NCBI RefSeq assembly: GCF_021272185.1
Contig: NZ_JAJSEC010000009.1
Coordinates: forward strand, 124,001-188,000
Reading direction: 5' to 3'
Source: Roseivivax sp. GX 12232
GTDB taxonomy: Bacteria; Pseudomonadota; Alphaproteobacteria; Rhodobacterales; Rhodobacteraceae
Length of the DNA stretch: 64,000 nucleotides
The position numbers and the translations under genes were made by a program. Positions within the stretch are counted from its first letter, which is position 1; every line of letters begins with the position of its first letter. This document shows, piece by piece, positions 16,526-53,111 of this stretch. The notes under the pieces are model-generated. The model was not told where the DNA came from and searched no databases. It was given only the letters and a program-made list of their open reading frames with translations.

Positions 16526-17044
16526 GGGGGCTGGGGTTGGGGGCTGCTGGGCGAGGCGGTAGTGCCGGCCCCACCCACGTCACCACCCCGCGCAACAGAG
16601 GGCGCGCACCGGACCGGGGGCCGGCGCTACTGACCTGTGAGCGAGGCGCTTTATCCACGCAAGGTCAGGGCTAGCGACGATCTATACGCCTCGCCCACAA
16701 GAGCGCCGGCCCAAGGGGCCGGTCCGGCGCGCGCCCGGCATCTTCGATGCTGTTCGGGCGCAAGGGGGAGGCGTTGCGCCGGGAGGCCTGGCGGGCGGGC
16801 AGGGGGGAAGTGTTGCGGTGCTCCGGGTGAAACGTCGCCGCGTGGTGCCAAGATCAGCGCCCACCAGCGCTTCTCATCGCCATCACCGCCACGCCATGAC
16901 CATACACCTCTCCTCCTTCCCCAGCCCCCCCTGAAACAAACCACACCACCGCCCCACGGCCCCTCACGAAGCGCGGAGGGGGGCTGCCCGGAGCGCGCGC
17001 CCGCCGCTAGCCTCGCTCCCACGCAGTCCAGGAGGAGACACGCC
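16526..17044. other. 519-bp intergenic region with repeat copy 1
   Basis: Between opgH and the YHS gene. It holds one copy of the 167-bp element (16598-16764). The remainder is GC-rich with a C/A-rich tract (about 16890-16960). A GGAGG ribosome-binding site precedes ATG 17045. I see no convincing gene here; frames through it are translations of the repeat. Confidence 0.7.
16598..16764 (-). repeat. 167-bp intergenic element, copy 1
   Basis: Read on the minus strand it runs from CTTGCGCCCGAA to GCGCGCCCTC, exactly 167 bp as in the four other copies. It has the distal hairpin in its GCATC-GAA-GATGC form, the GGCCC-CTT-GGGCC hairpin, the CTGACCT/AGGTCAG stem and the GCGC-rich inverted ends. Confidence 0.92.
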
Positions 17045-17566
17045 ATGCGCCCGACCGCCACACTGATCGCCGCTCTCGCCTTCGCCGCCCCCGGCCTCGC
17101 CGCCGCGGGCGAGCAATACGTCGACCCCACCGGCTTCGCCGTCTCGGGCTACGACGTGGTCGCCTATTTCGACCTGCCGCAGGCCGCGCCCGGCGCGCCC
17201 CAGCCCGAGGCCGTCCCGGGCCGCGCGGGCATCACCGCCGAGCACAACGGCGCCACCTTCGCCTTCGCCTCGGAGGAAAACCGCGCGCGCTTCCTCGCGG
17301 ACCCGGCCGCCTATGTCCCGCAATACGACGGCCATTGCGCCTATGGCGTGGCCAAGGGCGGCAAGGTGCCGGGCAATCCCAACCTCTGGCGTATCGTCGA
17401 CGGCAAGCTCTATCTCAACATCACCGAGGCGGTGGTGGGCTTCTGGGAAGAGGACATCCCCGGCAACATCGACCTCGCCCAGGGCAACTGGCCGGGCATC
17501 GAGCCGCAGGGCGCCTCGTCCCGGGCGATCCCGCAGTTCAGCTCCGCCGCGCCGCTGGCGCGCTGA
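17045..17566 (+). CDS. Exported YHS-domain protein
   Basis: 173 residues with a Sec signal peptide (about residues 1-21, ALAFAAPGLAAAG). The mature protein has a YHS-like core: GFAVSGYDVVAYFD, then HNGATFAFASEENRARFLADP and YDGHCAYGVAKG. YHS domains are small, sometimes metal-associated modules (copper or iron) of extracytoplasmic proteins. No catalytic role can be assigned. It is followed 50 nt later by another exported protein on the same strand. Confidence 0.8.
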   Translation: MRPTATLIAALAFAAPGLAAAGEQYVDPTGFAVSGYDVVAYFDLPQAAPGAPQPEAVPGRAGITAEHNGATFAFASEENRARFLADPAAYVPQYDGHCAYGVAKGGKVPGNPNLWRIVDGKLYLNITEAVVGFWEEDIPGNIDLAQGNWPGIEPQGASSRAIPQFSSAAPLAR

Positions 17567-17616
17567 GCAGGGCGCGCTAGCCTCCCGCCCATGACAGCCA
17601 GTCCGGGAGCCCGCCC

Positions 17617-18459
17617 ATGAACCTCAAGACCGCGACGCTGGCCCTCGGCCTGAACCTCGCCGCATCCCCCGCGCTCGCGCTCTGCGGCGGGGCCGAGCCC
17701 GCCTGCGAGATCCCGGGCGGCAGCTACCACGCCGAACTGCCCGAGGATCTTGCCGAAGGCGCCCCGGCGCTGGTCTTTCTGCACGGCTGGGGCTCGACCG
17801 GCGCAGGCACGCTGACGATGCGCGGCATGGTCGAGGCGGCCCTGGCGCGCGGCTACGCGGTGATCGCCCCCGACGGCATCCCGCGCCAGGGGCGCGGCGG
17901 GCGGACCTGGGCCTTCCACCCCGACCGCCCCGGCCCGCGCGACGAGGCCGCCTTCCTGCGCGCGGTCCGCGACGACGCCGCCGCGCGCTTCGGGCTCGAC
18001 CCCGAGAGGATGCTGCTCGCGGGCTTCTCCATCGGGGGCTCCATGGTGAGCTACCTCGCCTGCGACGCGCCCGGGAGATTCGCGGGCTACGCCCCGGTCG
18101 CGGGCAGCTTCTGGCGCCCGCATCCCGAGGGCTGCGCCGGCCCCGCGCCGCTTCTGCACACCCATGGCTGGCGCGACGGAACGGTGCCGCTCGAAGGGCG
18201 GCTCCTGCGCGGCGAGAGCCCCGAGGCCCCGGGCGCGGTGGTCCAGGGCGACGTCTGGCACGCCATGACGCTCTGGCGCGCCGCCAACGGCTGCCGGCTG
18301 CAGGCCGGGGCCTTCGAGAGCGACGAGACCTATTGGCGGAAGCGCTGGACCAATTGCAACGGCGCGCCGCTGGAGATGGCGCTGTTCGACGGCGGCCACG
18401 GGATTCCGCCCGGCTGGGCGGAGATGGCACTCGATTGGTTCGAGGGGCTGGCGGAGTAG
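17617..18459 (+). CDS. Exported alpha/beta-hydrolase esterase (PHB-depolymerase/LpqC-like)
   Basis: 280 residues with a signal peptide ending ASPALA near 21. Conserved esterase features are FLHGWGSTG (oxyanion region), IAPDGI, the nucleophile elbow AGFSIGGSM (Ser138), THGWRDGTVP (Asp) and a C-terminal His in DGGHGIPPG (about 263). Members hydrolyse short-chain esters such as polyhydroxybutyrate oligomers or feruloyl/acetyl esters in the periplasm. The substrate here is unknown. The gene is convergent with the lipoprotein gene that follows. Confidence 0.8.
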   Translation: MNLKTATLALGLNLAASPALALCGGAEPACEIPGGSYHAELPEDLAEGAPALVFLHGWGSTGAGTLTMRGMVEAALARGYAVIAPDGIPRQGRGGRTWAFHPDRPGPRDEAAFLRAVRDDAAARFGLDPERMLLAGFSIGGSMVSYLACDAPGRFAGYAPVAGSFWRPHPEGCAGPAPLLHTHGWRDGTVPLEGRLLRGESPEAPGAVVQGDVWHAMTLWRAANGCRLQAGAFESDETYWRKRWTNCNGAPLEMALFDGGHGIPPGWAEMALDWFEGLAE

Positions 18460-18590
18460 GCGGGAGGCTGTCGGGGCAGAGGCCCTTTGGGTCACCTTTC
18501 TGTGGTGCGCGTTTCAGTGAGCACGTGCGCCGCGCTGGCGTGGGAGGCCCTCTCAGCCCCTATACGCCAATTTCGCTCCGCCCGCCCGGC

Positions 18591-19139
18591 TCACTCCGCG
18601 ACCGCACCGCCCGCCCTGAGCGCCCGCGCCTGCATCCGCGGCATCCAGTCGTAGCGCGGATCCGCCCCCGGCGCGCCCCAGTAGAGCACCCCGCCGTGGC
18701 GCCAGGGATCAAGCAGCACGCCCTCTTCGAGCGGCGCGCCCCGGGCCGAGATCACCGCGGAATGGTGGATCACCCGGAAGCCCTCGGCGGGCGAGGTCGC
18801 CCAGTGCAGCTCAAGCGTCTCGAAGCCCTCCTGGCGGAGCCGGGTGATCATCGCCTCGGCCCAGTCGTTGCAGAGGCCCTTCTCGCGGAGCCCGTTGCGC
18901 ACCTTGGCGTTATGGACCAGCGGCGAAGAGGTGACCTGCCAATCCTCGGCGAGCTGCAAGGGGTATTCATAAGCGATCCGCGCGGCGCGCTGCGCCTCCT
19001 CCGGGTCGACGCTTGGCCCGAGCGCCGCGATCTCCGCGGCAAGCTTCGGGATCTCGCTCCGGTCCGGTTCGGGCGCGCCCGCGCAGGCGGCCAGAAGCGC
19101 GAGGATCGGCAGGAGAAGAAGCGGCGCGAGGCGGTGCAT
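18591..19139 (-). CDS. Putative lipoprotein with transglutaminase-like Cys-His-Asp pattern
   Basis: 182 residues. A lipoprotein signal (LLLLPILALLAAC) places the lipidated Cys at 19. Further on, GLCNDWAEAM (Cys90), VIHHSAVI (His125/126) and LLDPWRHGG (Asp144) occur in the order and spacing of bacterial transglutaminase-like cysteine peptidase folds. Activity is an inference from these three motifs only. The ATG at 19139 was chosen for the signal sequence; the longer frame runs into the intergenic region. It is transcribed alone, with two copies of the 167-bp element upstream of its start. Confidence 0.7.
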   Translation of the reverse strand: MHRLAPLLLLPILALLAACAGAPEPDRSEIPKLAAEIAALGPSVDPEEAQRAARIAYEYPLQLAEDWQVTSSPLVHNAKVRNGLREKGLCNDWAEAMITRLRQEGFETLELHWATSPAEGFRVIHHSAVISARGAPLEEGVLLDPWRHGGVLYWGAPGADPRYDWMPRMQARALRAGGAVAE

Positions 19140-19258
19140 GGGGGCTCCGGGGCAGGGGGCTGGCTCAGGAGTGGCCGGTTTTGCGGGGTGCTGCAAGAGG
19201 GAGGCTTTGCCGCGGTCGCTCCGCATCGCTGGGTGTTCCGGTCACGGCCAGGCACCCC

Positions 19259-19425
19259 CTTGCGCCCGAACAGCACCGAAGGTGCCGGGCGCGCGCCGGA
19301 CCGGCCCCTTGGGCCGGCGCTCCTTGGGGTGGCGTGCGTAGCTCACCTCTAGTCCTGACCTTGCGTTGATAAAACGCATAGCCCCGAGGTCAGCAGCGCC
19401 GGCCCCCGGTCCGACGCGCGCCCTC
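19259..19425 (+). repeat. 167-bp intergenic element, copy 2
   Basis: Runs from CTTGCGCCCGAA to CGCGCGCCCTC. It is the most divergent copy in the centre, where TGCGTT-GATAA-AACGCA forms a better hairpin than in the other copies. It has the perfect CTGACCT/AGGTCAG stem, and one end base is changed (CCGACGCG). Confidence 0.92.
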
Positions 19426-19582
19426 TGGTGGGGTGTGCGGCGAGGGCGGTGGGCCTGTGGTGAGCAGTCGCAGCAGTCGCCCGAAGGCGGGCGCTTGTGG
19501 CGAGGGGAGGCAAGCCGCCTGGTCGCGCGCTGCTAGGGCCAGCATCCCGCGCAGCACTAGGCCCCTTACCGCCAGGCACCCC

Positions 19583-19749
19583 CTTGCGCCCGAACAGCAT
19601 CGAAGATGCCGGGCGCGCGCCGGACCGGCCCGATGGGCCGGCGCTCCTTCGGATGGCGCGCTTAGCCTGTCGCTAGCCCTGACCTTGCTGGGATAAAGCG
19701 CCTTGCTCAGAGGTCAGCAGCGCCGGCCCCCGGTCCGGCGCGCGCCCTC
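19583..19749 (+). repeat. 167-bp intergenic element, copy 3
   Basis: Same length and orientation as copy 2. Carries the GCATC-GAA-GATGC hairpin variant (also in copy 1) in place of GCACC-GAA-GGTGC. It shares 12 bp of left flank (GCCAGGCACCCC) and about 40 bp of right flank with copy 2. Confidence 0.93.
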
Positions 19750-19877
19750 TGGTGGGGCGTGTGGCGCGGGTGGTGGGCCTGTGGTCAGCGGTTGAGCATT
19801 GGCCCAGCAGCATCCCCGGCCCGACAGACCGCAACGGCAGCGCGACACCCCCAAGGCCCCGCGCCACCACCCGCTCT

Positions 19878-20939
19878 TCACCGCAGCCGCTGCTCGGTCT
19901 CTCCGTCGAAGAACAGCGCCTCGGCGGGGTCGAAGACCAGCCGCACCTCGGTGCCCTCGGGGATGTCCTCGTCCGAGCGGGTCTCGACCACGATCCGGGC
20001 GTCCTTGCCGTCGACGAGGTAGTCGTAGGCCACCCCGCCCAGCCGTTCGCGGATGTCGAGGCGCAGCGGCGACGAGCCTTCCTCGACCGACAGCGCCTGG
20101 GGGCGCAGGCCGACCAGCACTCGGGCGCCCTCGGCGGGCAGGGCGACCGAGGTCTCGATCGGCGTCTCGCCCAGAAGCGGGCAGGCCACCTTGCCGCCGG
20201 TCACCACGCCCTCGAGGAAGTTCATCGAAGGCGAGCCGATGAAGCCCGCCACGAAGCGGTTGTCGGGGTCGTTGTAGAGATGCATGGGCGAGCCGACCTG
20301 CTCGATATGGCCGGCGCGCAGCACCACGATCTTGTCGGCCAGGGTCATCGCCTCGACCTGGTCGTGGGTGACATAGATCATCGTCGCGCCGATCTCCTTG
20401 TGCAGGCGCGCGATCTCGACCCGCATGTCGACGCGCAGCTCGGCGTCGAGGTTCGACAGGGGCTCGTCGAAGAGGAAGACCTCGGGCCCGCGCACGATGG
20501 CGCGGCCGATGGCGACCCGCTGGCGCTGGCCGCCGGACAGCGCCTTGGGCTTGCGCTTGAGGTAATCGCCGAGCTTCAGGATCCGCGCCGCCTCGGCGAC
20601 CTTCTCCTGGATCTCGGCCTTCGGGTGGCCGGTCATCTTCAGCCCGAAACCCATGTTCTCGGCCACGCTCATATGCGGGTAGAGCGCGTAGCTCTGGAAC
20701 ACCATGGCGACGCCCCGGTCGGCGGCATCGACGCGGGTCACGTCGCGGGCGCCGATGCGGATGGTGCCGTCCGAGGTCTCCTCGAGCCCCGCGATCATCC
20801 GCAGCAGCGTCGACTTCCCGCAGCCCGAGGGGCCGACGAAGACGCAGAACTCGCCTTCCTTGATGTCCAGGTCGAGCCCGTGGATGACTTCGACCTCGCC
20901 GTATTTCTTGACGGCCTTTTCCAGTGTGACGCCGCTCAT
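19878..20939 (-). CDS. Sugar ABC transporter ATP-binding protein (UgpC/MsmK-like)
   Basis: 353 residues. The ATPase domain has Walker [10 protein letters not shown] (about 38-46), signature [15 protein letters not shown], Walker [13 protein letters not shown] and the switch in [12 protein letters not shown]-terminal TOBE/regulatory domain of the CUT1 type contains [10 protein letters not shown]. It is encoded next to the IclR regulator, divergent from the binding protein and permeases that it must energise. Probable cargo is alpha-/beta-galactosides, judged from the island. Confidence 0.92.
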
Positions 20940-20952
20940 CGGCTCCTCCTCC

Positions 20953-21750
20953 TCAAATCTCGGCTTTGTCGGGAAACTGCCAGGCCGCGGTGGCCTCGGC
21001 GATCTCCCGCGCGGTTTCGATCAGCCGGGGCTTCAGCCCGGCCAGATCCTCGAGCCCGCGCCGCTCGGTCGACGTGGTGATCGAGAGCGCCCCCATGACC
21101 CTGCCGCCGGGCGACAGGATCGGGGCGGCGATGCAGATGATGCCGGGCTCGTGTTCCTCGCGGTCGTAGGCGATGCCCTCGGCGCGAATCGCGGCGCATT
21201 CCTCCTCCAGGGCCTCGGCGCTGGTGATGGTGCGCGCGGTGTGCCGGAAGAAGGCCTGCAGGGGCAGGGCGGCGGCGCGCTCCTCCTCGGGCAGATGCGC
21301 AAGCATGGCCTTGCCGACGCCGGTGCAATAGCCCGGCCCGACCTTGCCGGCGGCCGAGAACATCTCGAGCGGCTGGCTGGCATTGCGCTTGTCGACGTAA
21401 AGCACCTGGCCGCGGTCGAGCTGGGCGAGGTGAATGGTCTCGCAGACCTCGGCCGAGAGCCGGTCGAGGAAGGGCCGCGCGATGGGCGCCAGCGAAGAGC
21501 GCGCCCAGGCCGCATGGGCCAGCCGCACCAGCCGCAGGCCCGGCGCATAGGCGCCGGTCTCGGCGTCGAGGCGCAGCATGCCCTGGTTCACCAGCGTCTG
21601 CACCAGCCGGTAGAGCGTCGCCTTGGGCAGCGGCGAGAGCGCCTGCAGCTCGGCAAAGCGGATCGGCGCGCCATGGGCGGCCACGAGGTCGAGCACGTCC
21701 AGCGCCTTGCCGACGGTGCCGTCGCCCTGCCTCGGTGAGATCGCGTTCAT
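20953..21750 (-). CDS. IclR-family regulator of the galactoside island
   Basis: 265 residues. A winged-HTH N-terminus ([34 protein letters not shown]) is followed by the IclR effector domain ([54 protein letters not shown]). The ATG at 21750 is preceded by GGAGGAGA on the minus strand; longer frames have no homology. It is divergent from the transport/catabolic operon at 21889 and 13 bp upstream of the ATPase gene on the same strand. It likely senses a galactose-pathway intermediate (inference). Confidence 0.9.
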
Positions 21751-21823
21751 GCCCCTGTCTCCTCCCTCGTGCGGCCAGCACGTCCCGGATGGCCTGTTGA
21801 CAGCGATACGACGAATCCCGCAT

Positions 21824-21861
21824 AGTTTCAATAGTTGGACTCAAGTTTCAAATAATGAGAC
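21824..21861. promoter_or_regulatory. Candidate tandem IclR operator
   Basis: Two AT-rich near-repeats, AGTTTCAATAGTTGGAC and AGTTTCAAATAATGAGAC, start exactly 20 bp apart (about two helical turns) in the divergent IclR/binding-protein region. They stand out from the GC-rich surroundings. A site for the adjacent IclR protein is likely. Confidence 0.5.
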
Positions 21862-21888
21862 AAGGGTTCCGAGCTAAGGGAGGACTTC

Positions 21889-23148
21889 ATGCTCAGAACG
21901 CAACTCACCGCGGCAGCCGCGCTGTCGCTGGCCGCGGGCGGCGCCTTCGCGGCGGCCCATGAGACCCCGCTCAGCGGGACGCTCACGATCTTTTCGGACA
22001 TGTCGAACCCGGCGCCCCGCGCCGTGATGGAGGGCATGGCGCAGCGCTTCGACGAGATGCACCCCGATCTCGACGTCGAGCTGACGGTCATCGACCGCGA
22101 GGCCTACAAGACCCAGATCCGCAACTTCCTGACCGCCAATCCGCCCGACGTGGCGAACTGGTATGCCGCCAACCGCATGGCGCCCTATGTCGACGCGGGC
22201 CTCTTCGAGGATGTCTCGGACCTCTGGGCCGAGCCCGAGATCGCCGACAACCTGGCCTCGACCAAGGGCGCGATGACCATCGACGGCAAGCAGTGGGGCG
22301 TGCCCTATACCTACTACCAGTGGGGCGTGTACTACCGCGAGGACATCTACAACGAGCTCGGCCTGAGCGAGCCCGCCACCTGGGACGAGTTCAAGGCCAA
22401 CTGCCAGGCGATCCTCGACTCGGGCAAGAAGTGCTTCACCATCGGCTCGAAGTTCCTCTGGACCGCCGCCGGCTGGTTCGACTACCTCAACATGCGCACC
22501 AACGGCTATGACTTCCACATGGCCCTGACGCAGGGCGAGGTGGAATGGACCGACGACCGCGTCCGTCAGACCTTCGCCAACTGGCGCGAGCTGATCGACA
22601 TGGGCGCCTATATCGACAACCACCAGTCCTACTCCTGGCAGGAGGCGCTGCCCTTCATGGTGAACGGCGAGGCCGCCGCCTACCTGATGGGCAACTTCGC
22701 CGTGGCGCCGCTGCGCGAGGCGGGCCTGGGCGACGACCAGCTCGACTTCTACCAGTTCCCGGCGATCAACCCCGAGGTGGAACTGGCCGAGGACGCGCCG
22801 ACCGACACCTTCCACATCCCCTCGGGTGCGGAGAACAAGGAAGCCGCGCGCGCCTTCCTGCGCTTCGTGGTCTCGGCCGAGAACCAGACCACGATCAACT
22901 CGGGCGGTGCGCTCGGGCAGCTGCCGGTCAACGCGCAGAGCTCGGTCGACGACGACGAGATGCTGAACCAGGGCTTCGAGATGCTCTCCTCGAACAGCCC
23001 CGGCGGCATCGCGCAGTTCTTCGACCGCGACGCGCCCGCCGAGATGGCCTCGGTCGCCATGGAAGGCTTCCAGGAGTTCATGGTCTTCCCCGACAACCTC
23101 GAGGATATCCTCCAACGCCTCGAGCAGGCGCGCCAGCGGATCTACTGA
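21889..23148 (+). CDS. CUT1 sugar-binding protein (family 1 solute-binding, galactoside uptake)
   Basis: 419 residues with a signal peptide (about 1-24, ALSLAAGGAFAAAHE). The mature part has the SBP family 1 layout: LTIFSDMSNPAPRAVMEGMA, a FDEMHPDLDVELTVIDREAYKT segment (read as two motifs), AYLMGNFAV and a C-terminal repeat of hinge segments. The ATG follows GGAGGA. It is the first gene of the 11-kb galactoside operon, and the sugar-cleaving enzymes downstream imply an oligogalactoside ligand such as melibiose, raffinose or galacto-oligosaccharides. Confidence 0.9.
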   Translation: MLRTQLTAAAALSLAAGGAFAAAHETPLSGTLTIFSDMSNPAPRAVMEGMAQRFDEMHPDLDVELTVIDREAYKTQIRNFLTANPPDVANWYAANRMAPYVDAGLFEDVSDLWAEPEIADNLASTKGAMTIDGKQWGVPYTYYQWGVYYREDIYNELGLSEPATWDEFKANCQAILDSGKKCFTIGSKFLWTAAGWFDYLNMRTNGYDFHMALTQGEVEWTDDRVRQTFANWRELIDMGAYIDNHQSYSWQEALPFMVNGEAAAYLMGNFAVAPLREAGLGDDQLDFYQFPAINPEVELAEDAPTDTFHIPSGAENKEAARAFLRFVVSAENQTTINSGGALGQLPVNAQSSVDDDEMLNQGFEMLSSNSPGGIAQFFDRDAPAEMASVAMEGFQEFMVFPDNLEDILQRLEQARQRIY

Positions 23149-23163
23149 TCCCGACGCGCCATC

Positions 23164-23188
23164 CGGGCGGCCCCGCGCGGGCCGCCCG
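23164..23188 (+). other. Strong intercistronic hairpin after the binding-protein gene
   Basis: A perfect 10-bp GC stem (23164-23173 with 23179-23188) with a 5-nt loop and no T run, placed between the binding protein and permease genes. Such hairpins commonly protect the abundant binding-protein mRNA segment, as in malE-malF. Confidence 0.6.
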
Positions 23189-30970: not shown

Positions 30971-32872
30971 ATGCGCCGCACGCTTGGCACCTGCTATTAC
31001 CCCGAACACTGGCCCCGCGAGATCTGGGAAGAGGACGCCCGGCGCATGGTCGAAGCGGGCCTCACCTGGGTCCGCATCGGCGAGTTCGCCTGGTCGCGGC
31101 TCGAGCCCGCACCGGGGCGCTTCGAGTGGGACTGGCTCGATACCGCCATGCATGTGCTGGGGCAGGCGGGGCTGAAGGTCGTCCTCGGCACGCCCACCGC
31201 CACGCCGCCGCGCTGGGTGGTCGACAAACACCCCGACATGCTGGCCCGCGACGTCGAAGGCCGCCCGCGCGGCTATGGCTCGCGGCGGCACTACTGCTTT
31301 TCGCATGAGGGCTACCTGGCCGAATGCCGCCGGATCGTGACCGCCCTGGCCGATCGCTACGGCCATCACCCGCATCTCGCGGCCTGGCAGACCGACAACG
31401 AATACGGCTGCCACGACACCGCGGTCTCTTATTCCGAGGCGGCGCGGGACGCCTTCCGCGACTGGCTGGCGCAGCGTTACCAGTCGGTCGAGGCGCTGAA
31501 CCGCGCCTGGGGCAATGTCTTCTGGTCGATGGACTACGACAGCTTCGACCAGATCGAGCTGCCGAACCTGACCGTGACCGAGCCCAACCCGGCCCATAGC
31601 CTGGCCTTCCGGCGCTTTTCCTCGGACCAGGTGGCGCGCTTCAACCGTGTGCAGGTCGAGATCATCCGCGCCCGCTCCAAGGCGCCGATCTCGCACAACT
31701 ACATGGGCCGCGAGACCGGCTTCGATCACTACAAGGTCGGCGAAGACCTCGATTTCGTGACCTGGGATTCCTATCCCCTGGGCTTTCTCGAGGACAGGGT
31801 CGGCGCGGATGCCCAGACCCAGCGCCGCTACGCCCGGCAGGGCGAGCCGGATTTCCAGGCCTTCCACCACGACCTCTACCGCGCCACGGGGCGGGGGCGC
31901 TGGTGGGTCATGGAGCAGCAGCCCGGGCCGGTGAACTGGGCGCCGCACAATCCATCGCCACTGCCCGGCATGGTGCGCTTCTGGACCTGGGAGGCCTTTG
32001 CCCACGGTGCCGAGGCGGTCTGTTACTTCCGCTGGCGCCAGGCGCCTTTCGCCCAGGAGCAGCTGCACACCGGCATGTTGCGCCCCGACAGCGCCGAGGC
32101 GCCGGCCTACGGCGAGGCGCAGCAGGTGGCCCGCGAGCTCTCCGCGCGCCCCGAGGTGACGGCGGCCCGCGCCCCGGTCGCGCTGATCTTCGATTTCGAC
32201 GCGGCCTGGGCCTGGGAGGTGCAGCCGCATGGGGCGGGGCTGTCCTATTTCGACCTGGTGCTCGATCACTACCGGGCGCTGCGCCGGGCCGGGCTCAGCA
32301 TCGACATCCTGCCGCCCGAGGGGGATCTTTCGGGCTATGCCATGGTGCTGGCGCCGGGGCTGAACCGCATGCCCGAGGAGCTGAAGGCGCGGCTGAGCGG
32401 TTGCGGTGCCGAGGTGCTGATCGGCCCCCGGAGCGGCGCGCGGGACGGCGAGTTCTCCATCCCCGTGCCGCTGCCGCCCGCGATGCCCGGGCTCGACCTG
32501 CGGGTGACCCGGGTCGAGAGCCTGCGCCCCGACATGCCCCTGCCGCTTGAAGGCGGCGGCGGCGCGACGCGCTACCTCGAGGAGATCGAGGGCGGGGCCG
32601 AGGTGGTGCTGGCCAGCGAGGCGGGCCAGCCCGTCGCCATGCGCGGAGGGCGGGTGCTTTACATGGGCGGCTGGGGCGATGCCGCGGCGCTCGATCGGCT
32701 GGTGGCCGGGATGGCCGCGCGCGCCGGGGTGGCGCTGCGGGATATGCCCGAGGGCGTCCGCTGCCGCGAGACCGCGACCGAGCGCTTCTGGTTCAACCAC
32801 AACGCCGAGGCGGTGGAGGCCGAGGTTGGTGTCATCGGGCCGGCGGATTTCCTGGTGGAGGAGCTGGGGTAG
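30971..32872 (+). CDS. GH42 beta-galactosidase
   Basis: 633 residues with the GH42 three-domain layout. The catalytic TIM barrel opens with GTCYYPEHWP and GLTWVRIGEFAWSRLEP. The acid/base Glu is in WQTDNEYGCH (Glu144) and the nucleophile Glu in WWVMEQQPGPVNWAP (about 315). A trimerisation domain from about 395 and a small C-terminal beta domain follow. It is cytoplasmic (no signal peptide) and lies 41 nt after dgoA as the last gene of the galactoside operon. Together with melA it lets the cell open both alpha- and beta-galactosides. Confidence 0.93.
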   Translation: MRRTLGTCYYPEHWPREIWEEDARRMVEAGLTWVRIGEFAWSRLEPAPGRFEWDWLDTAMHVLGQAGLKVVLGTPTATPPRWVVDKHPDMLARDVEGRPRGYGSRRHYCFSHEGYLAECRRIVTALADRYGHHPHLAAWQTDNEYGCHDTAVSYSEAARDAFRDWLAQRYQSVEALNRAWGNVFWSMDYDSFDQIELPNLTVTEPNPAHSLAFRRFSSDQVARFNRVQVEIIRARSKAPISHNYMGRETGFDHYKVGEDLDFVTWDSYPLGFLEDRVGADAQTQRRYARQGEPDFQAFHHDLYRATGRGRWWVMEQQPGPVNWAPHNPSPLPGMVRFWTWEAFAHGAEAVCYFRWRQAPFAQEQLHTGMLRPDSAEAPAYGEAQQVARELSARPEVTAARAPVALIFDFDAAWAWEVQPHGAGLSYFDLVLDHYRALRRAGLSIDILPPEGDLSGYAMVLAPGLNRMPEELKARLSGCGAEVLIGPRSGARDGEFSIPVPLPPAMPGLDLRVTRVESLRPDMPLPLEGGGGATRYLEEIEGGAEVVLASEAGQPVAMRGGRVLYMGGWGDAAALDRLVAGMAARAGVALRDMPEGVRCRETATERFWFNHNAEAVEAEVGVIGPADFLVEELG

Positions 32873-33315
32873 GGGTGGCTTGCACCCTCAGCTTGGGCCT
32901 TTGGTGAGGGTGGCGGACGCGCTTTTTGCGGAAGCCCGCCAAGACCGGCGTTTGCATGAGTGCGATCGGTTGAATCTGGCTCCTCTTGCGCCCGAATAGC
33001 ACCGAAGGTGCCGGGCGCGCGCCGGACCGGCCCGATGGGCCGGCGCTCCTTGGGCTGGCGTGCATAGCGTTTCTCTAGTCCTGACCTTGCTGGGATAAAG
33101 CGCCTCGCTCAGAACTCAGCAGCGCCGGCCCCCGGTCCGGCGCGCGCCCTCTGGTGGGGCGTGTCGAGAGGGTGCCGGGGTGGCCTGTGCGGGAGACGCG
33201 CCGGATCGATGTCCGGCAGCTCCGCAAGCCTCGCGCCTCCCCCCCAATCCCGGGCTTGCGCCCCAGGACGAGCCTGTCACAGTGGCGCAAAATTCCCCCA
33301 TCAAGGAGCCGCCAT
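32873..33315. other. 443-bp intergenic region with repeat copy 4
   Basis: Between the GH42 gene and the SDR gene. It contains the 167-bp element at 32985-33151, followed by about 20 bp of right-flank similarity to copies 2 and 3. AAGGAG precedes the SDR start. No gene seen. Confidence 0.75.
32985..33151 (+). repeat. 167-bp intergenic element, copy 4
   Basis: Same 167-bp extent and orientation as copies 2 and 3, with the GCACC-GAA-GGTGC hairpin, GGCCC-GAT-GGGCC hairpin and perfect inverted ends. The CTGACCT partner is altered (AACTCAG). Confidence 0.93.
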
Positions 33316-46288: not shown

Positions 46289-47722
46289 ATGGGCGACATT
46301 CTGATCGTGGACGACGAGCGGGACATCCGCGAGTTGATCGGGGACATCCTCGAGGACGAGGGCTTCAGCATCCGGCTGGCCGGCAATTCCAACGAGGCGA
46401 TGAGCGAGATCAACGGCGAGCCGCCGGCGCTGATCATCCTCGATATCTGGCTGAAAGACAGCAAGATGGACGGGATCGACATCCTCAAGACCGTCAAGCG
46501 CGACAATCCCGACATTCCCGTGGTCATCATTTCGGGCCATGGCAATATCGAGATCGCCGTGGCCGCGATCAAGCAGGGCGCCTATGACTTCATCGAGAAG
46601 CCCTTCAACATCGACCAGCTGCTGGTGGTGATCCGCCGCGCCATGGAGACCGCACGGCTGCGCCGCGAGAACCAGAAGCTGAAGCGCCGCGAGACCGAGG
46701 TGGCCGAGATGATCGGCGACAGCCCGGCCTTCCGTAACCTGGTGAGCCAGCTCGACAAGGTGACGAAATCCAACGGCCGGGTGATGCTGACCGGCCCCGC
46801 GGGCTGCGGCAAGGAGGTCGCCGCGCGCTACATCCACGCCCGCTCGAACCGCGCGCAGGGGCCCTTCGTGACGGTCAACTGCGCGGGCGTCATGCCCGAG
46901 TCGATGGAAGAGGTGCTGTTCGGCCGCGAAACCCCCGACCGGGGTGTCGAGCCGGGCCTTCTCGAGCAGGCCCATGGCGGGATCGTCTATTTCGACGAGG
47001 TGGCCGACATGCCCTCGGGCACCCAGTCGAAGATCCTGCGCGTGCTGGTCGACCAGCAATTCACCCGCGTCGGCGGGCAGGACAAGGTGCGCGTCGACCT
47101 GCGGGTGATCTCTTCGACGAACCGCGACCTGGAGACCGAGATTTCCGCCGGCCGCTTCCGCGAGGAGCTGTATCACCGGCTGAACGTGGTGCCGATCCCG
47201 GTGCCCTCGCTCGAGGACCGGCGCGAGGACATCCCCGGGCTCGCCACGCATTTCATCGAGCTCTGCAACCGTGCCCAGGGCCTGCCGCGCCGGGCGCTGT
47301 CGGAAGATGCGGTGGCGCTTCTGCAGACGATGATCTGGCCGGGCAACGTGCGGCAGCTGAAGAACCTGATCGAACGGGTGCTGATCCTCGGCGACGGCAC
47401 CGGCCCGATCGAGGCGGCTGAGCTGCCGCAGGAGGCCACCCCGGGCGCCGAGGGCGAGGGCCGGGTGGTGCTCTCGGGCACGCTGGCGACCATGCCGCTG
47501 CGGGAGGCCCGCGAGGCCTTTGAGCGGGAATACCTGCTGACCCAGATCAACCGCTTCGGCGGCAACATCTCGCGGACCGCGAACTTCGTCGGCATGGAGC
47601 GCTCGGCGCTGCACCGCAAGCTGAAGTCGCTGGGCGTGGTGACCTCGGCCAAGGGCGGCGCGCGCATCGCCCATGTCGACGAGGAGGACGAGGCCGAGAC
47701 CCCCGCGCGGCAGACCGCCTGA
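46289..47722 (+). CDS. ntrX: Response regulator NtrX
   Basis: 477 residues. Receiver with Asp52 (ILDIWLKD), AAA+ with Walker A GPAGCGKE (169-176) and Walker B GGIVYFDEVAD, and a C-terminal Fis-type HTH (GGNISRTANFVGMERSALHRKL). The GAFTGA loop is replaced by LFGRETPDRGVEPG (about 210-223), so it is unlikely to activate sigma-54. The ATG follows AAGGAAGGG, 17 nt after ntrY. Confidence 0.94.
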   Translation: MGDILIVDDERDIRELIGDILEDEGFSIRLAGNSNEAMSEINGEPPALIILDIWLKDSKMDGIDILKTVKRDNPDIPVVIISGHGNIEIAVAAIKQGAYDFIEKPFNIDQLLVVIRRAMETARLRRENQKLKRRETEVAEMIGDSPAFRNLVSQLDKVTKSNGRVMLTGPAGCGKEVAARYIHARSNRAQGPFVTVNCAGVMPESMEEVLFGRETPDRGVEPGLLEQAHGGIVYFDEVADMPSGTQSKILRVLVDQQFTRVGGQDKVRVDLRVISSTNRDLETEISAGRFREELYHRLNVVPIPVPSLEDRREDIPGLATHFIELCNRAQGLPRRALSEDAVALLQTMIWPGNVRQLKNLIERVLILGDGTGPIEAAELPQEATPGAEGEGRVVLSGTLATMPLREAREAFEREYLLTQINRFGGNISRTANFVGMERSALHRKLKSLGVVTSAKGGARIAHVDEEDEAETPARQTA

Positions 47723-48088
47723 GCGGGGCTTTCGGCGCGCGGCGGCGGGCCTTGGCCCGCCCGCGCCCGCGCGCGGAGCCCGCGCCCATTCGGCCCACTA
47801 GCCCCCGCGCACGGAGCCCGCGCCCATCCTGCGCGGACGGGTCTCGGCAAACTGCCCGCGCTCGATGCCTGCGCCCATGCAGACCACGCGCCCGCGACCA
47901 CCAGACCACCCGCCCGGGGCCAAGCGCCCGCGGGCGTGGCGTGCGCCCATTCCGCCCACCCACGCCCCCCGCGTCCAAAGTCCCGGCAGCGCCACACCCC
48001 TGCCGCTGCGTCAGCCCCGGCGTGATTGACCGCGGGGGCGCCCCGTGTCAGACCCTCTCTTCAGTCGATCATCTTTTCGGGATGTCCC
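47723..48088. other. 366-bp intergenic region with degenerate GC repeats
   Basis: Between ntrX and trkA. GGAGCCCGCGCCCAT occurs exactly at 47775-47789 and 47813-47827, and shorter related pieces with GCGCCCAT recur further on (about 47870 and 47945). No gene seen. Low-complexity frames here give Ala/Arg/Pro-rich peptides only. Confidence 0.6.
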
Positions 48089-49465
48089 ATGAAGGTCATC
48101 ATCTGCGGGGCGGGCCAGGTCGGCTGGCAGATCGCCCGCCATCTCTCGGGCGAGCGCAACGACGTCACGGTCGTGGACAACAACCCCGACCTGGTGCGGC
48201 GCGCCACCGATACGCTGGATGTCCAGGGCATCGCGGGCTTCGCCTCCTACCCGGACGTGCTGGACCGCGCGGGCGCCCAGGACGCCGAGATGATCATCGC
48301 CGCGACCCATTCCGACGAGGTCAACATGGTCACCTGCCAGGTGGCCCACTCGATCTTCGCCATCCCGCGCAAGATCGCCCGGCTCCGGGCGCAAAGCTAC
48401 CTCGACGCGATCTATTCCGACCTCTACCGCCGCGACCACCTGCCGATCGACGTGGTGATCAGCCCCGAGCGCGAGGTCGCCGACGCCGCCCTGCAACGGC
48501 TGGGCTCGCCCTCGGCCTTCGACACCGAGACCTTCCTCGACGGGCGCGCGCAGCTTCTGGGCCTGGCCATCGACGAGGATTGCGCGGTGGTGAACACGCC
48601 GCTGCGGCAGCTCTCGGACCTCTTCTCGACCCTGCGCGCGGTGGTCGTCGGCGTGCGCCGCGAGGGCACGCTTTTCGCCCCCGAACCCGAGGACCAGATC
48701 TTCATCGGCGACAGCGTCTACGTCATGGTCCACGAGGAAGACGCGATCCGCACGCTGGAGATCTTCGGCAAGCCGCACCGCAAGCAGGAGCGCGTCGTGC
48801 TGATCGGCGGCGGCAACGTCGGGCGCATGGTCGCCCGCAACCTCGAGGAGCGCGAGGAGCGCATCCGCGCCAAGATCATCGAGCGTCACCGCCCGACCGC
48901 CGAACGCGCCGCCGAGGAGCTGGAAAAGACCATCGTGCTGCACGGCGACGGGCTCGACACCGCGCTTCTGGCCGAGGCCAACATCGGCCGGGCCGATGCG
49001 GTCCTCTGCGTGACCGACGACGACAAGACCAACATGCTGGCCGCGGTCCGTGCCAAGGCGGCGGGCTGTCCCATGGCCATCGCGCTGATCAACGACCCGA
49101 CGCTGACCGCGATGATGGAGCCGCTGGGGATCGACGCCTATATCAACCCGCGCGCCACCACGGTTTCCTCGATCCTGCGCCACATCCGCCACGGACGGGT
49201 GCGCGCGGTCTATTCCATCGGCGACGCCGAGGCCGAGGTGATCGAGGCCGAGGTCCTCTCGACCTCGCCGATCACCGGCCAGCGCATCCGCGACATCGAC
49301 TTCCCCGAGGGCGTGCTGGTCGGCGCGCTGCGCAAGGGCGGCAAGGTGGTCAAGCTGACCGGCGCCACCCGCGTCGACGAGGGCGACCAGATCGTGATCT
49401 TCGCGCTCTCCAAGGATGTCGCCGCGGTCGAGACGCTGCTGCAAGTCTCCATCGACTTCTTCTGA
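48089..49465 (+). CDS. trkA: Trk potassium-uptake regulatory protein TrkA
   Basis: 458 residues, two RCK units. Each has a Rossmann NAD-binding loop: VIICGAGQVGWQIARHL at 3-19 and VVLIGGGNVGRMVARNL at about 234-250. They are followed by VTVVDNN, ATHSDEVNMVTC and LCVTDDDKTNML. Cytoplasmic partner gating the TrkH channel. ATG 48089 starts the homology. trkH begins 9 nt later. Confidence 0.95.
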   Translation: MKVIICGAGQVGWQIARHLSGERNDVTVVDNNPDLVRRATDTLDVQGIAGFASYPDVLDRAGAQDAEMIIAATHSDEVNMVTCQVAHSIFAIPRKIARLRAQSYLDAIYSDLYRRDHLPIDVVISPEREVADAALQRLGSPSAFDTETFLDGRAQLLGLAIDEDCAVVNTPLRQLSDLFSTLRAVVVGVRREGTLFAPEPEDQIFIGDSVYVMVHEEDAIRTLEIFGKPHRKQERVVLIGGGNVGRMVARNLEEREERIRAKIIERHRPTAERAAEELEKTIVLHGDGLDTALLAEANIGRADAVLCVTDDDKTNMLAAVRAKAAGCPMAIALINDPTLTAMMEPLGIDAYINPRATTVSSILRHIRHGRVRAVYSIGDAEAEVIEAEVLSTSPITGQRIRDIDFPEGVLVGALRKGGKVVKLTGATRVDEGDQIVIFALSKDVAAVETLLQVSIDFF

Positions 49466-49474
49466 CCCGGTCCC

Positions 49475-50989
49475 ATGGCGCGGCTCCTGTCCATCCCGCT
49501 GATGCTGCTCCTGGCCGGGGCCGGGGCGCTGGCCATGCTGGCCCCGGCGGTGCTGGCGCTGGCGCAGGAGGATTTCCACGACGCCCGTGCGTTTTTCTAC
49601 GCGAGCCTCCTGTCGGGCATCTGCATCACGCTGGTGGCCCTGGCGCTGGCCGGGGGCAACCACAACCGCCGGGCGCTGCGTCAGCTCCTGGCGCTGCTGC
49701 TGGCCTTCATCGTCCTGCCGGCGATGCTGGCGGTGCCGTTCCACCAGGCGGTGCGCACCACGAGCTTCCTCAACGCCTACCTCGAGATGGTCTCCGCCAT
49801 GACCACCACGGGGCTGACGCTATTCGCGCCCGAGCGGCTGTCGGATGCGGAACACCTCTGGCGGGCCGAGGTCGGCTGGCTCGGCGGGCTGTTGATGTGG
49901 ATCGCCGCGGCGGCGATCCTGGCACCGCTGACGCTTGGCGGCTTCGAGGTCACCGCGGTGTCGGAGCCCGGCCAATCCGCGGCCCCGGGCGCCGCCCACC
50001 GCGACCAGGCCGACCCGCGGCTCCGCCTCGCACGGGTGGTGCACGCGCTGGTGCCGGTCTACGCGGGGCTGACGCTGGCGCTCTGGCTCGGGCTCATGGC
50101 GGCGGGCGAGACGCCCTTCGTGGCGCTCTGCCACGCCATGTCGACGCTGGCGACCTCGGCGATCTCGCCGGTGGGTGGGCTCGAGGGCTCGCAGGCGGGC
50201 CACGCGGGCGAGGCGTTGATCTTCCTCTTCCTGCTGTTCTCGCTCTCGCGGCTGACCTTCTCGAACGACACCTCCGCGGCGCGGCGGCAGGGGCTCTGGT
50301 ATGACCCCGAGTTCCGCATGGGCATCCTGATCACCGGGGCGGTGCCGCTCATGCTGTTCCTGCGCCACTGGCTCGCTTCCTTCGACGTCGGCACCGAGGA
50401 GAACATGGCCCAGGCGCTGCGCGCCTTCTGGGGCGCGGCCTTCACCACGCTGTCCTTCCTGACCACCACCGGCTTCGAGAGCACCGACTGGGCCCGCACC
50501 CAGGGCTGGTCGGGGCTGAACACGCCGGGGCTGATCCTGATGGCGCTGGCGCTGGTCGGCGGCGGCGTGGCGACGACGGCGGGCGGGGTGAAGCTCCTGC
50601 GGGTCTTCATCCTGGTCCTGAACGGGCGGCGCGAGCTGGAGCGGCTGATCCACCCCAGCTCCGTCGGCCGCTCGGGCCTTCTGTCGCGGCGCACCCGGCG
50701 CGAGGGCGCCTTCATCGCCTGGGTCTTCTTCATGATCTTCGCGCTGACGCTCGCGGTCATGGTGCTGGCCTTCGCGGCCTTCGGCATCCGCTTCGAGGGC
50801 GCCTTCGTCCTGGCGCTCGCGGGGCTGACCAACACCGGGCCGATCGTGTCCCTGGCGACCGAAATGCCCATCGTGATCGCGCAATACGGCGACGGGGTGA
50901 AGGCGGTCCTGGCGGCGGCGATGATCCTCGGGCGGCTCGAAGTGCTGGCCATCATCGTGACCTTGACGCCCGATCTCTGGCGCGATTGA
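49475..50989 (+). CDS. trkH: Potassium channel/transporter subunit TrkH
   Basis: 504 residues with about ten to twelve TM segments and four pore-loop repeats. The loops are recognisable by Thr-Thr-Gly runs: SAMTTTGLTLF, MSTLATSAISPVGG, FLTTTGFESTDW and GLTNTGPIVSL. GGGVATTAGGVKLLR is also characteristic of the family. Takes up K+ with TrkA. Position behind ntrX-trkA and before hfq matches many alphaproteobacteria. Confidence 0.92.
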   Translation: MARLLSIPLMLLLAGAGALAMLAPAVLALAQEDFHDARAFFYASLLSGICITLVALALAGGNHNRRALRQLLALLLAFIVLPAMLAVPFHQAVRTTSFLNAYLEMVSAMTTTGLTLFAPERLSDAEHLWRAEVGWLGGLLMWIAAAAILAPLTLGGFEVTAVSEPGQSAAPGAAHRDQADPRLRLARVVHALVPVYAGLTLALWLGLMAAGETPFVALCHAMSTLATSAISPVGGLEGSQAGHAGEALIFLFLLFSLSRLTFSNDTSAARRQGLWYDPEFRMGILITGAVPLMLFLRHWLASFDVGTEENMAQALRAFWGAAFTTLSFLTTTGFESTDWARTQGWSGLNTPGLILMALALVGGGVATTAGGVKLLRVFILVLNGRRELERLIHPSSVGRSGLLSRRTRREGAFIAWVFFMIFALTLAVMVLAFAAFGIRFEGAFVLALAGLTNTGPIVSLATEMPIVIAQYGDGVKAVLAAAMILGRLEVLAIIVTLTPDLWRD

Positions 50990-51117
50990 GGGCATAGGCC
51001 CACACCCGCGGGGTAAGATTCGGATTCGCTCTGGAAACTCGCAAAATCGCAGACCATACTCGGCCGAAATCAAGCGGCGGCCTGCGGCACGCTCTGACAA
51101 GAATAAAGGCTCGTTCA

Positions 51118-51360
51118 ATGGCTTCGGATAAGCAGAATCTGCAAGACGCATTTCTTAATCACGTTCGCAAAACCAAGGTCCCGGTGACCGTTTTCCTGAT
51201 CAACGGCGTAAAGCTGCAGGGGGTGATCACCTGGTTCGACAATTTCTGTGTCCTGCTGCGCCGGGACGGTCAATCGCAGCTCGTCTACAAGCACGCGATC
51301 TCGACCATAATGCCGGCCCAGCCGATCAACCTCTATGACGGGGACACCGGCGCGTCTTGA
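51118..51360 (+). CDS. hfq: RNA chaperone Hfq
   Basis: 80 residues. Sm1 motif region [21 protein letters not shown] and the Sm2 motif [10 protein letters not shown] are intact, with QSQLVYKHA supplying the proximal RNA-binding face. Forms hexamers that pair small RNAs with mRNAs. The C-terminal tail is short, as usual in alphaproteobacteria. A 128-bp spacer upstream probably holds a promoter of its own. It overlaps hflX by 4 nt (TTGA). Confidence 0.97.
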
Positions 51361-52631
51361 CGACTGACGATACCCGCGACACCCGCGCCTGGGTGCTGCA
51401 TCCCGACATCAAGACCGACCGCGACCGCCGCGACGCGGAGATCGCGCTTGCCGAGGCCGTGGCCCTGGCCGAAGCCCTGCCGGGGCTCGAGGTCGTGGGC
51501 CAGGAGGTCGTGCCGCTGCGCGATCCGCAGCCGGGCGAGCTGTTTGGCAAGGGCAAGATCGCCGAGATCGCCGAGCGCCTCGCCGAGGAAGAGATCGAGC
51601 TGGTGCTGATCGACGGCCCGGTGACGCCGGTGCAGCAGCGCAACCTCGAGAAGGCCTGGAAGGTCAAGCTGCTCGACCGGACCGGGTTGATCCTCGAGAT
51701 CTTCTCGGACCGCGCGGCGACCCGCGAGGGCGTCTTGCAGGTCGAGATGGCGCATCTGTCTTACCAGCGCACGCGGCTGGTCCGCGCCTGGACCCACCTG
51801 GAACGCCAGCGCGGCGGGCTGGGCTTCGTCGGCGGCCCCGGCGAAACCCAGATCGAGGCCGACCGGCGCGCCATCGACGAACAGCTCGTGCGGCTGCGCC
51901 GGCAGCTCGACAAGGTGGTCAAGACCCGCACGCTGCACCGCGCAGCGCGGGCAAAGGTGCCCTATCCGATCGTGGCGCTGGTGGGCTACACCAACGCCGG
52001 CAAGTCGACGCTCTTCAACCGGCTCACCGGCGCCGAGGTCATGGCCAAGGACATGCTCTTCGCCACGCTCGACCCGACGATGCGCGGGGTGCGGCTCGAC
52101 AATGGCATCGACGTGATCCTTTCCGACACGGTGGGCTTCATCTCGGATCTGCCGACCGAGCTGGTGGCGGCCTTCCGCGCCACGCTCGAAGAGGTGCTCG
52201 AGGCCGATCTGATCCTGCATGTGCGCGACATCAGCCACCCCAACTCCGAGGAGCAGGCGGCGGATGTGCGCGCGATCCTGGCCTCGCTCGGGGTGCGCGA
52301 GACGACGCCCGAGCTGGAGCTCTGGAACAAGACCGACCTTCTCGATCCCGAGGCGCAGGCGGGCTTCGCCGAACGCGCCGCGCGCGAGGAGGACATCCAC
52401 ACGGTCTCGGCCCTGACCGGCTCCGGTATGGGCCCGGTGCTGGAGGCGATTGCCGGCAAGCTCGAGGGCGACATGCGCACCGAGGAGCTGCGGCTGCCCT
52501 TCGCCGACGGCCGCAAGCGCGCCTGGCTCTTCGACAAGGGCCTGGTCGAGGGCGAGGTGCAGGACGAGGAGGGCTACCTGCTCACCGTGCGCTGGTCGGC
52601 GAAAGACGCGGCGCGCTTCGAGAAGGTGTGA
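51357..52631 (+). CDS. hflX: Ribosome-associated GTPase HflX
   Basis: 424 residues. The N-terminal HflX domain has [14 protein letters not shown] and the glycine-rich linker [18 protein letters not shown]. The G domain has G1 GYTNAGKST (about 208-216), the switch [10 protein letters not shown] and the G4 NKTDLL. It splits or rescues stalled ribosomes after stress. The start is a TTG overlapping the hfq stop, indicating coupled translation. Confidence 0.95.
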
Positions 52632-52903
52632 GGGGCGCGGGGGCTTTGGCTAGGGCTTGAGGGCTAGGGCGCGGGAGGCTGTTAGCGGCGCTTGGGCCGG
52701 GGCTTTGGCCTGGGCGTTTGCGCGCGGGAGACTGCGGGAGACTGTAAGCGGCGCTAGTGACAGGGCTTGAGCGCTTGAGCGCGGGGCGCTGTTGGCGGCG
52801 CTGGAGCGCTGGAGCGCCGGTGCTGGCGGGGCTGTGAGGCCGGAGTTGGCGGGTAACGCCCTTCGGTGTGAAACCCGCGGTGCCGACATACCTGCGTAGG
52901 TGA
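52632..52903. repeat. Degenerate GC-rich repeats after hflX
   Basis: A block with recurring variants of AGGGCTTGAG...GCTGTT-GCGGCGCT, first at 52653 and again at 52763 (110 bp apart). A third partial unit GGGAGACTGTAAGCGGCGCT lies between them. No gene. With copy 5 of the 167-bp element directly after it, this makes a 506-bp gene-free zone between the convergent hflX and acylase genes. Confidence 0.6.
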
Positions 52904-53070
52904 GAGGGCGCGCGCCGGACCGGGGGCCGGCGCTGCTGCCCGCCGAGCGAGGCACTTTATCCCGGCAAGGTCAGGACGAGCGACGATCTCAGCGCGCCAT
53001 TCCAAGGAGCGCCGGCCCATCGGGCCGGTCCGGCGCGCGCCCGGCACCTTCGGTGCTATTCGGGCGCAAG
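52904..53070 (-). repeat. 167-bp intergenic element, copy 5
   Basis: Read on the minus strand it has the same CTTGCG...CCCTC limits and the same 167-bp length as the other copies. Carries the GCACC-GAA-GGTGC hairpin; the AGGTCAG arm is altered to CGGGCAG. It sits between the 3' ends of two convergent genes. Confidence 0.93.
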
Positions 53071-53073
53071 ACA

Positions 53074-53111
53074 GCGCGCGCCCGGCACCTTCGGTGCTGT
53101 TCGGGCGCAAG
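53074..53111 (-). repeat. Extra copy of the element's terminal hairpin
   Basis: 38 bp repeating 53033-53070 with one mismatch, so copy 5 ends with a doubled GCACC-GAA-GGTGC hairpin and CTTGCGCCCGAA end. Confidence 0.9.

What the first reader, a model, noticed from the sequence alone, without database searches (positions are those of the whole stretch)
16598..53111. Five copies of an unnamed 167-bp intergenic element with identical length
Copies lie at 16598-16764 (-), 19259-19425 (+), 19583-19749 (+), 32985-33151 (+) and 52904-53070 (-). All run from CTTGCGCCCGAA to GCGCGCCCTC and are exactly 167 bp by my count, without apparent indels despite many substitutions. The arms GGGCGCGCGCCGGACCGG and CCGGTCCGGCGCGCGCCC are perfect inverted repeats in copies 3 and 4, near perfect elsewhere. 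None interrupts a gene and no transposase is near. I know of no named family with this sequence. Fixed length plus inverted ends fits a non-autonomous mobile unit; conserved internal structure also fits a structured RNA or REP-like function. This is the best candidate here for an undescribed system.
Basis: seen in the sequence. Interest (0 to 1): 0.85.

Follow-up and report, generated by a model that had tools for sequence, protein, structure and literature searches.

The report
Rhodobacteraceae-wide palindromic intergenic repeat family
The five copies belong to a large, apparently undescribed family of hairpin-forming DNA repeats that sits between genes, occurs about 230 times in this genome and elsewhere in one bacterial family, and is surrounded by a strand-biased base composition whose cause is unknown.

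Summary
The five 167-bp copies are at the stated places. The genome holds about 230 (3' arm 230 hits, 5' hairpin 234, reversed-pattern controls 0). In 864 kb sampled, 129 full-length copies were found; 119 are exactly 167 nt and none overlaps a called gene. Diverged relatives occur in 71 of 295 family genomes, one per genus; of 385 class genomes 2 match, both of this family. The inverted arms covary in 37 sequences from 35 genomes: 111 double-changed cells against 33 shuffled. Copy number in the genus runs from 0 to about 230, and 1 of 6 testable sites is shared with a congener, so copies turn over. No Rfam match, no RAYT gene found, no target duplication found. Unexpected: the strand pointing at the element is G-rich on both sides whatever the neighbouring genes' orientation, also in other genomes. 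Best reading: an ERIC/CIR-like non-autonomous palindromic repeat. My favoured, unproven cause of the flank bias is recurrent breakage and repair at the hairpin; a bidirectional terminator is the main rival.

The parts
16598..16764 (-). copy 1 of the 167-bp element, about 73 nt after the stop of a glycosyltransferase-like gene (ends 16525, + strand), antisense to it
19259..19425 (+). copy 2, first of a same-orientation pair (start-to-start 324 bp)
19583..19749 (+). copy 3, second of the pair, about 129 nt from the 3' end of an ABC-transporter ATPase gene (19878-20939 -)
32985..33151 (+). copy 4, about 112 nt after the stop of a GH42 beta-galactosidase gene (30971-32872 +), sense to it
52904..53070 (-). 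copy 5, between convergent genes: HflX-type GTPase (ends 52631 +) and penicillin amidase family (53138-55630 -)
53073..53111 (-). solo fragment of the element's 5' hairpin (model positions 1-39), directly 5' of copy 5

Best explanation
SHOWN: a family of non-coding DNA repeats, intergenic in every sampled copy of this genome and, in the genomes searched, confined to one bacterial family. The core is about 165 nt: a small 5' hairpin, then a long stem of two stacked inverted-repeat helices, around a variable interior with a near-invariant ATAAAG-CGC motif. Arm changes mostly keep Watson-Crick pairing. Copy number differs about a hundredfold within one genus and sites turn over, yet sampled copies of this genome are nearly all full length and similar. 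INFERRED: it is a non-autonomous mobile repeat of the ERIC/Correia/CIR kind, moved by an enzyme not identified here. INFERRED, less certain: the DNA palindrome extrudes a hairpin or cruciform, is cut, and the ends are resected and repaired from a sister or another copy. That would homogenise copies, keep arms complementary at the DNA level, and expose the strand whose 3' end points at the element as single-stranded DNA on both sides, leaving the G-over-C and T-over-A bias on that strand (the halo). Any host use, such as transcription punctuation between convergent genes, would be secondary.
For: About 230 copies. 129 full-length copies against 3 other partial matches and 4 solo 5' ends in 864 kb. 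0 of 129 in genes. Relatives in 71 of 295 family genomes; in the genus 7 of 9 genomes (own included) match, with 0, 0, 2, 4, 6, 29, 39, 59 and, for the own genome, 150 hits at the cap (at least 4 of the 59 are the palindrome read on the other strand); 65 stretches in named genomes, titled Rhodobacteraceae, Rhodobacterales or genera I recall as members; 3 plasmid records. Covariation: 95.9% of cells paired, 15 of 26 pairs with double changes, 111 double-changed cells against 32.8 shuffled. Turnover: 1 of 6 testable sites shared with G006. DNA-level pairing: outer stem 22 A.C and 12 G.T cells in 116 copies; hairpin pair 18/24 is C-G 63, T-A 40, other 5 in 108 copies. Halo: noncoding skew on the strand pointing at the element +0.207 (91 gene 3' sides) and +0.263 (66 gene 5' sides), against +0.058 (168) and +0.046 (218) in element-free regions; same for both orientations relative to GC skew; fourfold sites in the last 100 nt of genes facing an element +0.182 and +0.145, against -0.071 and -0.088; in other genomes, identical copies removed, upstream minus downstream skew is positive in 86 of 100 copies, control positions 42 of 100.
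Against: No target-site duplication found and no enzyme tied to it (looked for Y1_Tnp only), so mobility rests on turnover and copy-number differences. The halo could be selected or come in with inserted DNA. At equal distance fourfold sites shift more in genes whose 3' end faces the element than in those whose 5' end does, which hints at transcription. G+C does not clearly fall in the halo, so simple C-to-T deamination is not enough. Within about 60 nt of the core the bias is reversed in this genome but not in others, which the break model does not explain. Across species, pairs 64/159 and 72/152 show many wobble cells (18 and 9 of 37), which fits RNA. The other-genome halo was not corrected for gene orientation. 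Breakage and gene conversion were not observed.
Confidence: 0.5

Rival explanations
1. Bidirectional transcription terminator or insulator: RNA polymerase arriving from either side transcribes a C-over-G stretch (rut-like for Rho) and then the strong hairpin, and stops; selection places elements between convergent genes.
For: Elements occupy 37 of 109 convergent intergenic regions against 43 of 475 co-directional and 12 of 117 divergent in the sample. In this genome the 50 nt before the core are C>G in 111 of 129 copies for rightward and 116 of 129 for leftward transcription. The outer arms show no preference for one RNA strand.
Against: No U-tract after the stem (sequence), so not an intrinsic terminator. 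The C>G stretch before the core is absent in other genomes (the 60 nt upstream are G-skewed, +0.106). 12 element regions are divergent. Elements in co-directional regions do not follow gene strand (19 of 43). Copy number from 0 to about 230 within a genus argues against an essential role.
Confidence: 0.3
2. Structured non-coding RNA, or an mRNA-embedded RNase III/RNase E processing module, acting on the transcribed strand.
For: Strong predicted fold of copy 3 (z -4.94) and strong covariation. Some pairs vary mostly between Watson-Crick and wobble (98/134 and 106/123 in own copies; alignment columns 64/159 and 72/152 across species).
Against: The outer stem in own copies tolerates A.C at least as often as G.T; orientation is unrelated to neighbouring genes; no Rfam relative. 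About 230 copies is unusual for a dedicated RNA.
Confidence: 0.1
3. REPIN/REP element moved by a RAYT (IS200/IS605-type tyrosine transposase).
For: Bulged 5' hairpin, ssDNA-foldable; orientation associated with GC skew in this genome (92 regions, Fisher p 0.0019).
Against: No Y1_Tnp match in this 99.69%-complete genome with about 230 copies (5 of 14 control genomes ring). By eye no GTAG/CGTC tag at the ends. Two-block orientation not significant on four other chromosomes. Neighbouring regions agree in orientation only 33 of 53 (p 0.098).
Confidence: 0.03
4. A recombination site at which gene cassettes are exchanged (attC-like).
For: In two Aliiruegeria species the element lies between the same two genes (rplW and rplB, recognised by eye), with a different gene of 233 or 253 aa just left of the element's left edge.
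Against: One locus only; that copy has a degenerate right arm (by eye); spacers of the 31 pairs are too short for a gene; no integrase search was made.
Confidence: 0.04

Closest known systems
CIR elements (CcrM-associated intergenic repeats, Caulobacter and other alphaproteobacteria)
   Same: about 110-bp intergenic inverted-repeat elements in alphaproteobacteria with two-arm RNA folds and no known mobiliser (passages of PMC2229807)
   Different: a conserved GANTC site defines CIRs; here 1 of 129 own copies has one (0.05 per kb against 0.60 background), while 46 of 109 distinct copies from other genomes do. Length of about 165 nt and the composition halo are not in the passages read; the original CIR paper was not held.
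ERIC (enterobacterial repetitive intergenic consensus, 127 bp)
   Same: fixed length, mostly intergenic, stem-loop-forming, copy number from tens to hundreds by species (passages of PMC10969869 and PMC2229807)
   Different: other sequence and clade; the table in PMC2229807 gives TIR, TSD and TA ends for ERIC; no TSD found here
Correia / NEMIS elements of Neisseria
   Same: about 107-bp and 155-bp repeats with inverted ends, more than 120 copies
   Different: TSD and TA ends (table in PMC2229807), IHF site and promoters: not found or not tested here
REP/REPIN with RAYT
   Same: hairpin with a bulge, many intergenic copies
   Different: no RAYT found in the genome, no GTAG/CGTC tag by eye; the unit is 165 nt, not 20-40 nt (abstract and passages of PMC3733652)

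Membership tests
CIR elements | conserved GANTC methylation site in the repeat | tested here: not met
   1 of 129 own copies; 46 of 109 distinct copies of other genomes, 35 with GGAATCAAG in the 5' hairpin
CIR elements | intergenic inverted repeats in alphaproteobacteria | tested here: met
   0 of 129 in genes; 65 named stretches all Rhodobacteraceae/Rhodobacterales by title or recalled genus
MITE (ERIC/Correia type) | short, non-coding, inverted repeats, many copies | tested here: met
MITE (ERIC/Correia type) | target-site duplication | tested here: not met
   no enriched direct repeat in a scan of 61 single-copy sites; element ends are uncertain, so a weak test
MITE (ERIC/Correia type) | presence/absence difference at orthologous sites | tested here: met
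   1 of 6 testable sites shared between two congeners
MITE (ERIC/Correia type) | related autonomous element supplying transposase | not tested
   only Y1_Tnp was searched
REPIN/RAYT | RAYT transposase in genome | tested here: not met
   0 matches
Rfam structured RNA | match to a curated family | tested here: not met
Intrinsic terminator | U-tract after the stem | tested here: not met
   sequence after the right arm is CTCTGTTG or similar, read by eye
Rho-dependent terminator | C>G stretch ahead of the stop point | tested here: inconclusive
   met in this genome, not in other genomes
Rho-dependent terminator | Rho-dependent RNA 3' ends | not testable with these tools
   no transcript data

The most novel reading that the evidence does not exclude
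The element is a programmed or recurrent DNA breakage-and-recombination site: a palindrome about every 18 kb on average that is cut as a hairpin, whose flanks carry a recombination-friendly strand bias (G/T-rich, Chi-like words pointing at the break on both sides), which keeps copies homogenised genome-wide and creates local hotspots of mutation and gene exchange in Rhodobacteraceae.
Probability: 0.15. Interest if true: 0.85.

Novelty: new variant of a known kind. Interest (0 to 1): 0.6.

Why it matters
It adds an apparently unnamed repeat family, with a covarying structure and very different copy numbers in sister species, to a large and well-sequenced bacterial family. The symmetric strand bias around each copy, also visible at fourfold-degenerate sites of neighbouring genes, is a feature I have not met for bacterial intergenic repeats (recall, not a search result). 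It makes testable whether such palindromes are breakage hotspots, terminators, or both. The elements may also serve as markers and cause assembly breaks.

Tried and rejected
Replication orientation: in this genome element strand follows the GC skew of its stretch (copies p 0.0002; regions p 0.0019), but on four other chromosomes (G208, G017, G005, G073) the best two-block split was reached by 143, 216, 201 and 440 of 1000 shuffles (made on the listed hits only: 83 of 99, 26 of 36, 23 of 29, 18 of 21), so I do not claim a general leading-strand rule. Neighbour agreement in orientation is not significant (33 of 53).

Extended hairpin: left and right flanks do not pair better with their own partner than with another locus. 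Tandem duplication as the source of all pairs: on average flanks of 31 pairs are little more alike than between loci (up 0.58 against 0.56, down 0.65 against 0.58), though some pairs are clearly duplicates. Single Chi-like motif: flanks are enriched in G-runs and GGGGTG/GGTGG words rather than one octamer; the top 7-8-mers look like a local tandem array. Solo 5' hairpin as a separate REP: counts of 5' and 3' ends match (234 and 230), so it is rare. Phages: no match with a relative's copy, L052 (the window copy was not tried there). Plasmids: none with the window copy, 3 records with L052. Literature: nine searches; the listings, some capped (12 of 23, 8 of 43 and 10 of 745 papers shown), held nothing on this repeat as far as titles and abstract starts tell; two searches were on general topics; the library lacks most subscription papers. 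Inserted genes beside the Aliiruegeria copies: no Pfam or PADLOC match.

Weak points: genes were called with a home-made codon-usage script, not a standard caller; the 40 stretches were chosen because they hold elements, so densities and region counts are biased; copies of a pair are not independent; one search scored 9 candidates per genome with strict filters and the own-genome model, so 71 of 295 is a lower bound; one search scored at most 7 per genome at E<=1e-5, so weak members outside the family could be missed. In some searches eight copies from other genomes were counted twice because the same site came in through two loci; one search repeats those counts on the 109 distinct copies and I quote it (86 of 100 instead of 92 of 107; 46 of 109 instead of 47 of 117).
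Full report
CHECK. No Rfam family matches the window at gathering score or one representative copy at E<=1.

GENOME-WIDE. The window is part of a 4.12-Mb draft genome (38 contigs, 99.69% complete). The 27-nt 3' arm occurs 230 times with up to 3 mismatches, the reversed pattern 0 times; the 36-nt 5' hairpin occurs 234 times, reversed 0. In 40 stretches of 20 kb plus the window (864 kb, chosen to contain elements) a profile found 129 full-length copies among 172 rows. Of the other 43 rows I read 3 as other partial copies, 4 as solo 5' ends and 36 as the palindrome matching on the opposite strand. Of the 129, 119 are 167 nt, 5 are 168, 4 are 166 and 1 is 165.

CONTEXT. Genes were called by a script trained on Pfam-confirmed genes of the window. 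0 of 129 copies overlap a gene by more than 30 nt; 6 lay at stretch edges and were left out of the context counts. 92 intergenic regions hold the other 123: 61 one, 31 two, none three; all 31 pairs are co-oriented. Start-to-start spacing is 253-371 bp, 16 of 31 in 308-324. Element regions are long (median 689 bp for one copy, 874 for two, against 117 without). They make up 37 of 109 convergent, 43 of 475 co-directional and 12 of 117 divergent regions of the sample, and element strand is unrelated to gene strand (19 of 43 co-directional regions).

FAMILY. A covariance model of 50 own copies found relatives in 71 of 295 genomes of the family, one genome per genus; most of the listed matches span all 167 model positions and are about 160-170 nt. 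An alignment of 37 sequences from 35 genomes (two genomes gave two copies each) shows similar length, the 5' hairpin, two stacked helices and the ATAAAG-CGC motif. RNAalifold gives 26 pairs, 15 with double changes. With controls: 95.9% of cells paired against 81.9% shuffled, 111 double-changed cells against 32.8, and structures slid by 1-3 columns at 37-45% paired. A model from that alignment found 7 of 9 genomes of the genus, own included, positive with very different counts, and 2 of 385 class genomes, both of the same family. A 32-nt pattern of one subfamily hit 65 stretches in named genomes, with Rhodobacteraceae or Rhodobacterales titles or genus names that I recall as members. A relative's copy matched 3 plasmid records of Salipiger and Pacificitalea and no phage.

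TURNOVER. Of 59 hits in congener G006 (at least 4 are opposite-strand readings of the palindrome), 30 came as loci. Six of these had both flanks matched to my sampled own DNA: one site (L201) is shared, in the same orientation, with one copy there and two here; five (L203, L204, L209, L224, L225) are not. Beside L203 an own region of over 1 kb with two copies corresponds to about 250 nt in G006. No target-site duplication was found in 61 single-copy sites. No Y1_Tnp gene was found in the genome.

DNA OR RNA. In 116 copies the outer stem (29-63 with 137-165) departs from Watson-Crick by 22 A.C, 12 G.T and 22 other cells, sums made by hand from the rows. A strand-specific RNA should prefer G.T. 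The 5' hairpin pair 18/24 is C-G in 63 and T-A in 40 of 108 copies, with 5 others. This fits a palindrome kept at the DNA level or working in both directions. Against it: some inner pairs of own copies vary between Watson-Crick and G.T (98/134, 106/123), and across species columns 64/159 and 72/152 hold 18 and 9 wobble cells.

HALO. Around the core, on the element strand, noncoding DNA of single-copy regions is G-skewed at about -181 to -360, C-skewed in the last 60 nt, G-skewed in the first 60 nt after, and C-skewed at about +121 to +300, in convergent (26), divergent (8) and both co-directional classes (12 and 15); the bins between are mixed and the farthest hold few bases (one search gives base frequencies). 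Next to genes, the strand pointing at the element has skew +0.207 (91 gene 3' sides) and +0.263 (66 gene 5' sides), against +0.058 (168) and +0.046 (218) in element-free regions. Copies oriented with and against the GC skew agree. Fourfold-degenerate sites in the last 100 nt of genes facing an element are shifted (+0.182 and +0.145 against -0.071 and -0.088); for genes whose 5' end faces the element the shift is weaker. In 100 distinct copies of other genomes upstream skew is +0.089 and downstream -0.050, against -0.002 and +0.019 at control positions; the difference is positive in 86 of 100 (control 42 of 100, which removes copies counted twice). This was not corrected for gene orientation. 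The reversed inner 60 nt are not seen there. Flanks of one copy do not pair with each other better than with other loci.

INTERPRETATION. Kind: a non-autonomous, hairpin-forming intergenic repeat like ERIC, Correia or CIR. CIR membership fails on GANTC (1 of 129). The halo has the geometry expected if a break at the palindrome were resected on both sides, because the strand with its 3' end at the break would be single-stranded on each side; it is also the geometry of Chi-like words pointing at a break. Those statements rest on general knowledge of SbcCD, RecBCD/AddAB and Chi, not on a test here. The terminator rival explains convergent enrichment and the inner C>G stretches of this genome, but not the other genomes. 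I put the kind at about 0.85, breakage as the cause of the halo at about 0.35, and a transcription role at about 0.3; these can overlap.

LITERATURE. Passages were read in PMC10969869, PMC3733652 and PMC2229807. The word Rhodobacter occurs in none of the three; Paracoccus and Roseobacter were also absent from the first two. Nine searches gave no description of this family in their listings, which is not proof that none exists.

Noticed in passing
window 7385-7552: Tandem array of a 7-nt GACGCCC unit.
   Followed up: no
L021 1205-1385 (G000 C1:90722-90902): Three extra copies of the 5' hairpin at 73-bp spacing upstream of a full element; the intervening sequence is similar by eye, so a tandem duplication rather than a CRISPR.
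   Followed up: partly
L112 about 3335-4183 and L147 about 2197-3106: Two Aliiruegeria species carry different genes of 233 and 253 aa, without Pfam or PADLOC match, between rplW and the same element copy.
   Followed up: partly
own genome flanks: What looks like a tandem array of an ATCTCCC-type heptamer dominates the enriched 7-8-mers of the flanks.
   Followed up: no
L034, L032, L037 upstream flanks: Diverged variants of the 5' hairpin lie just upstream of full elements and may be a second hairpin subfamily.
   Followed up: no
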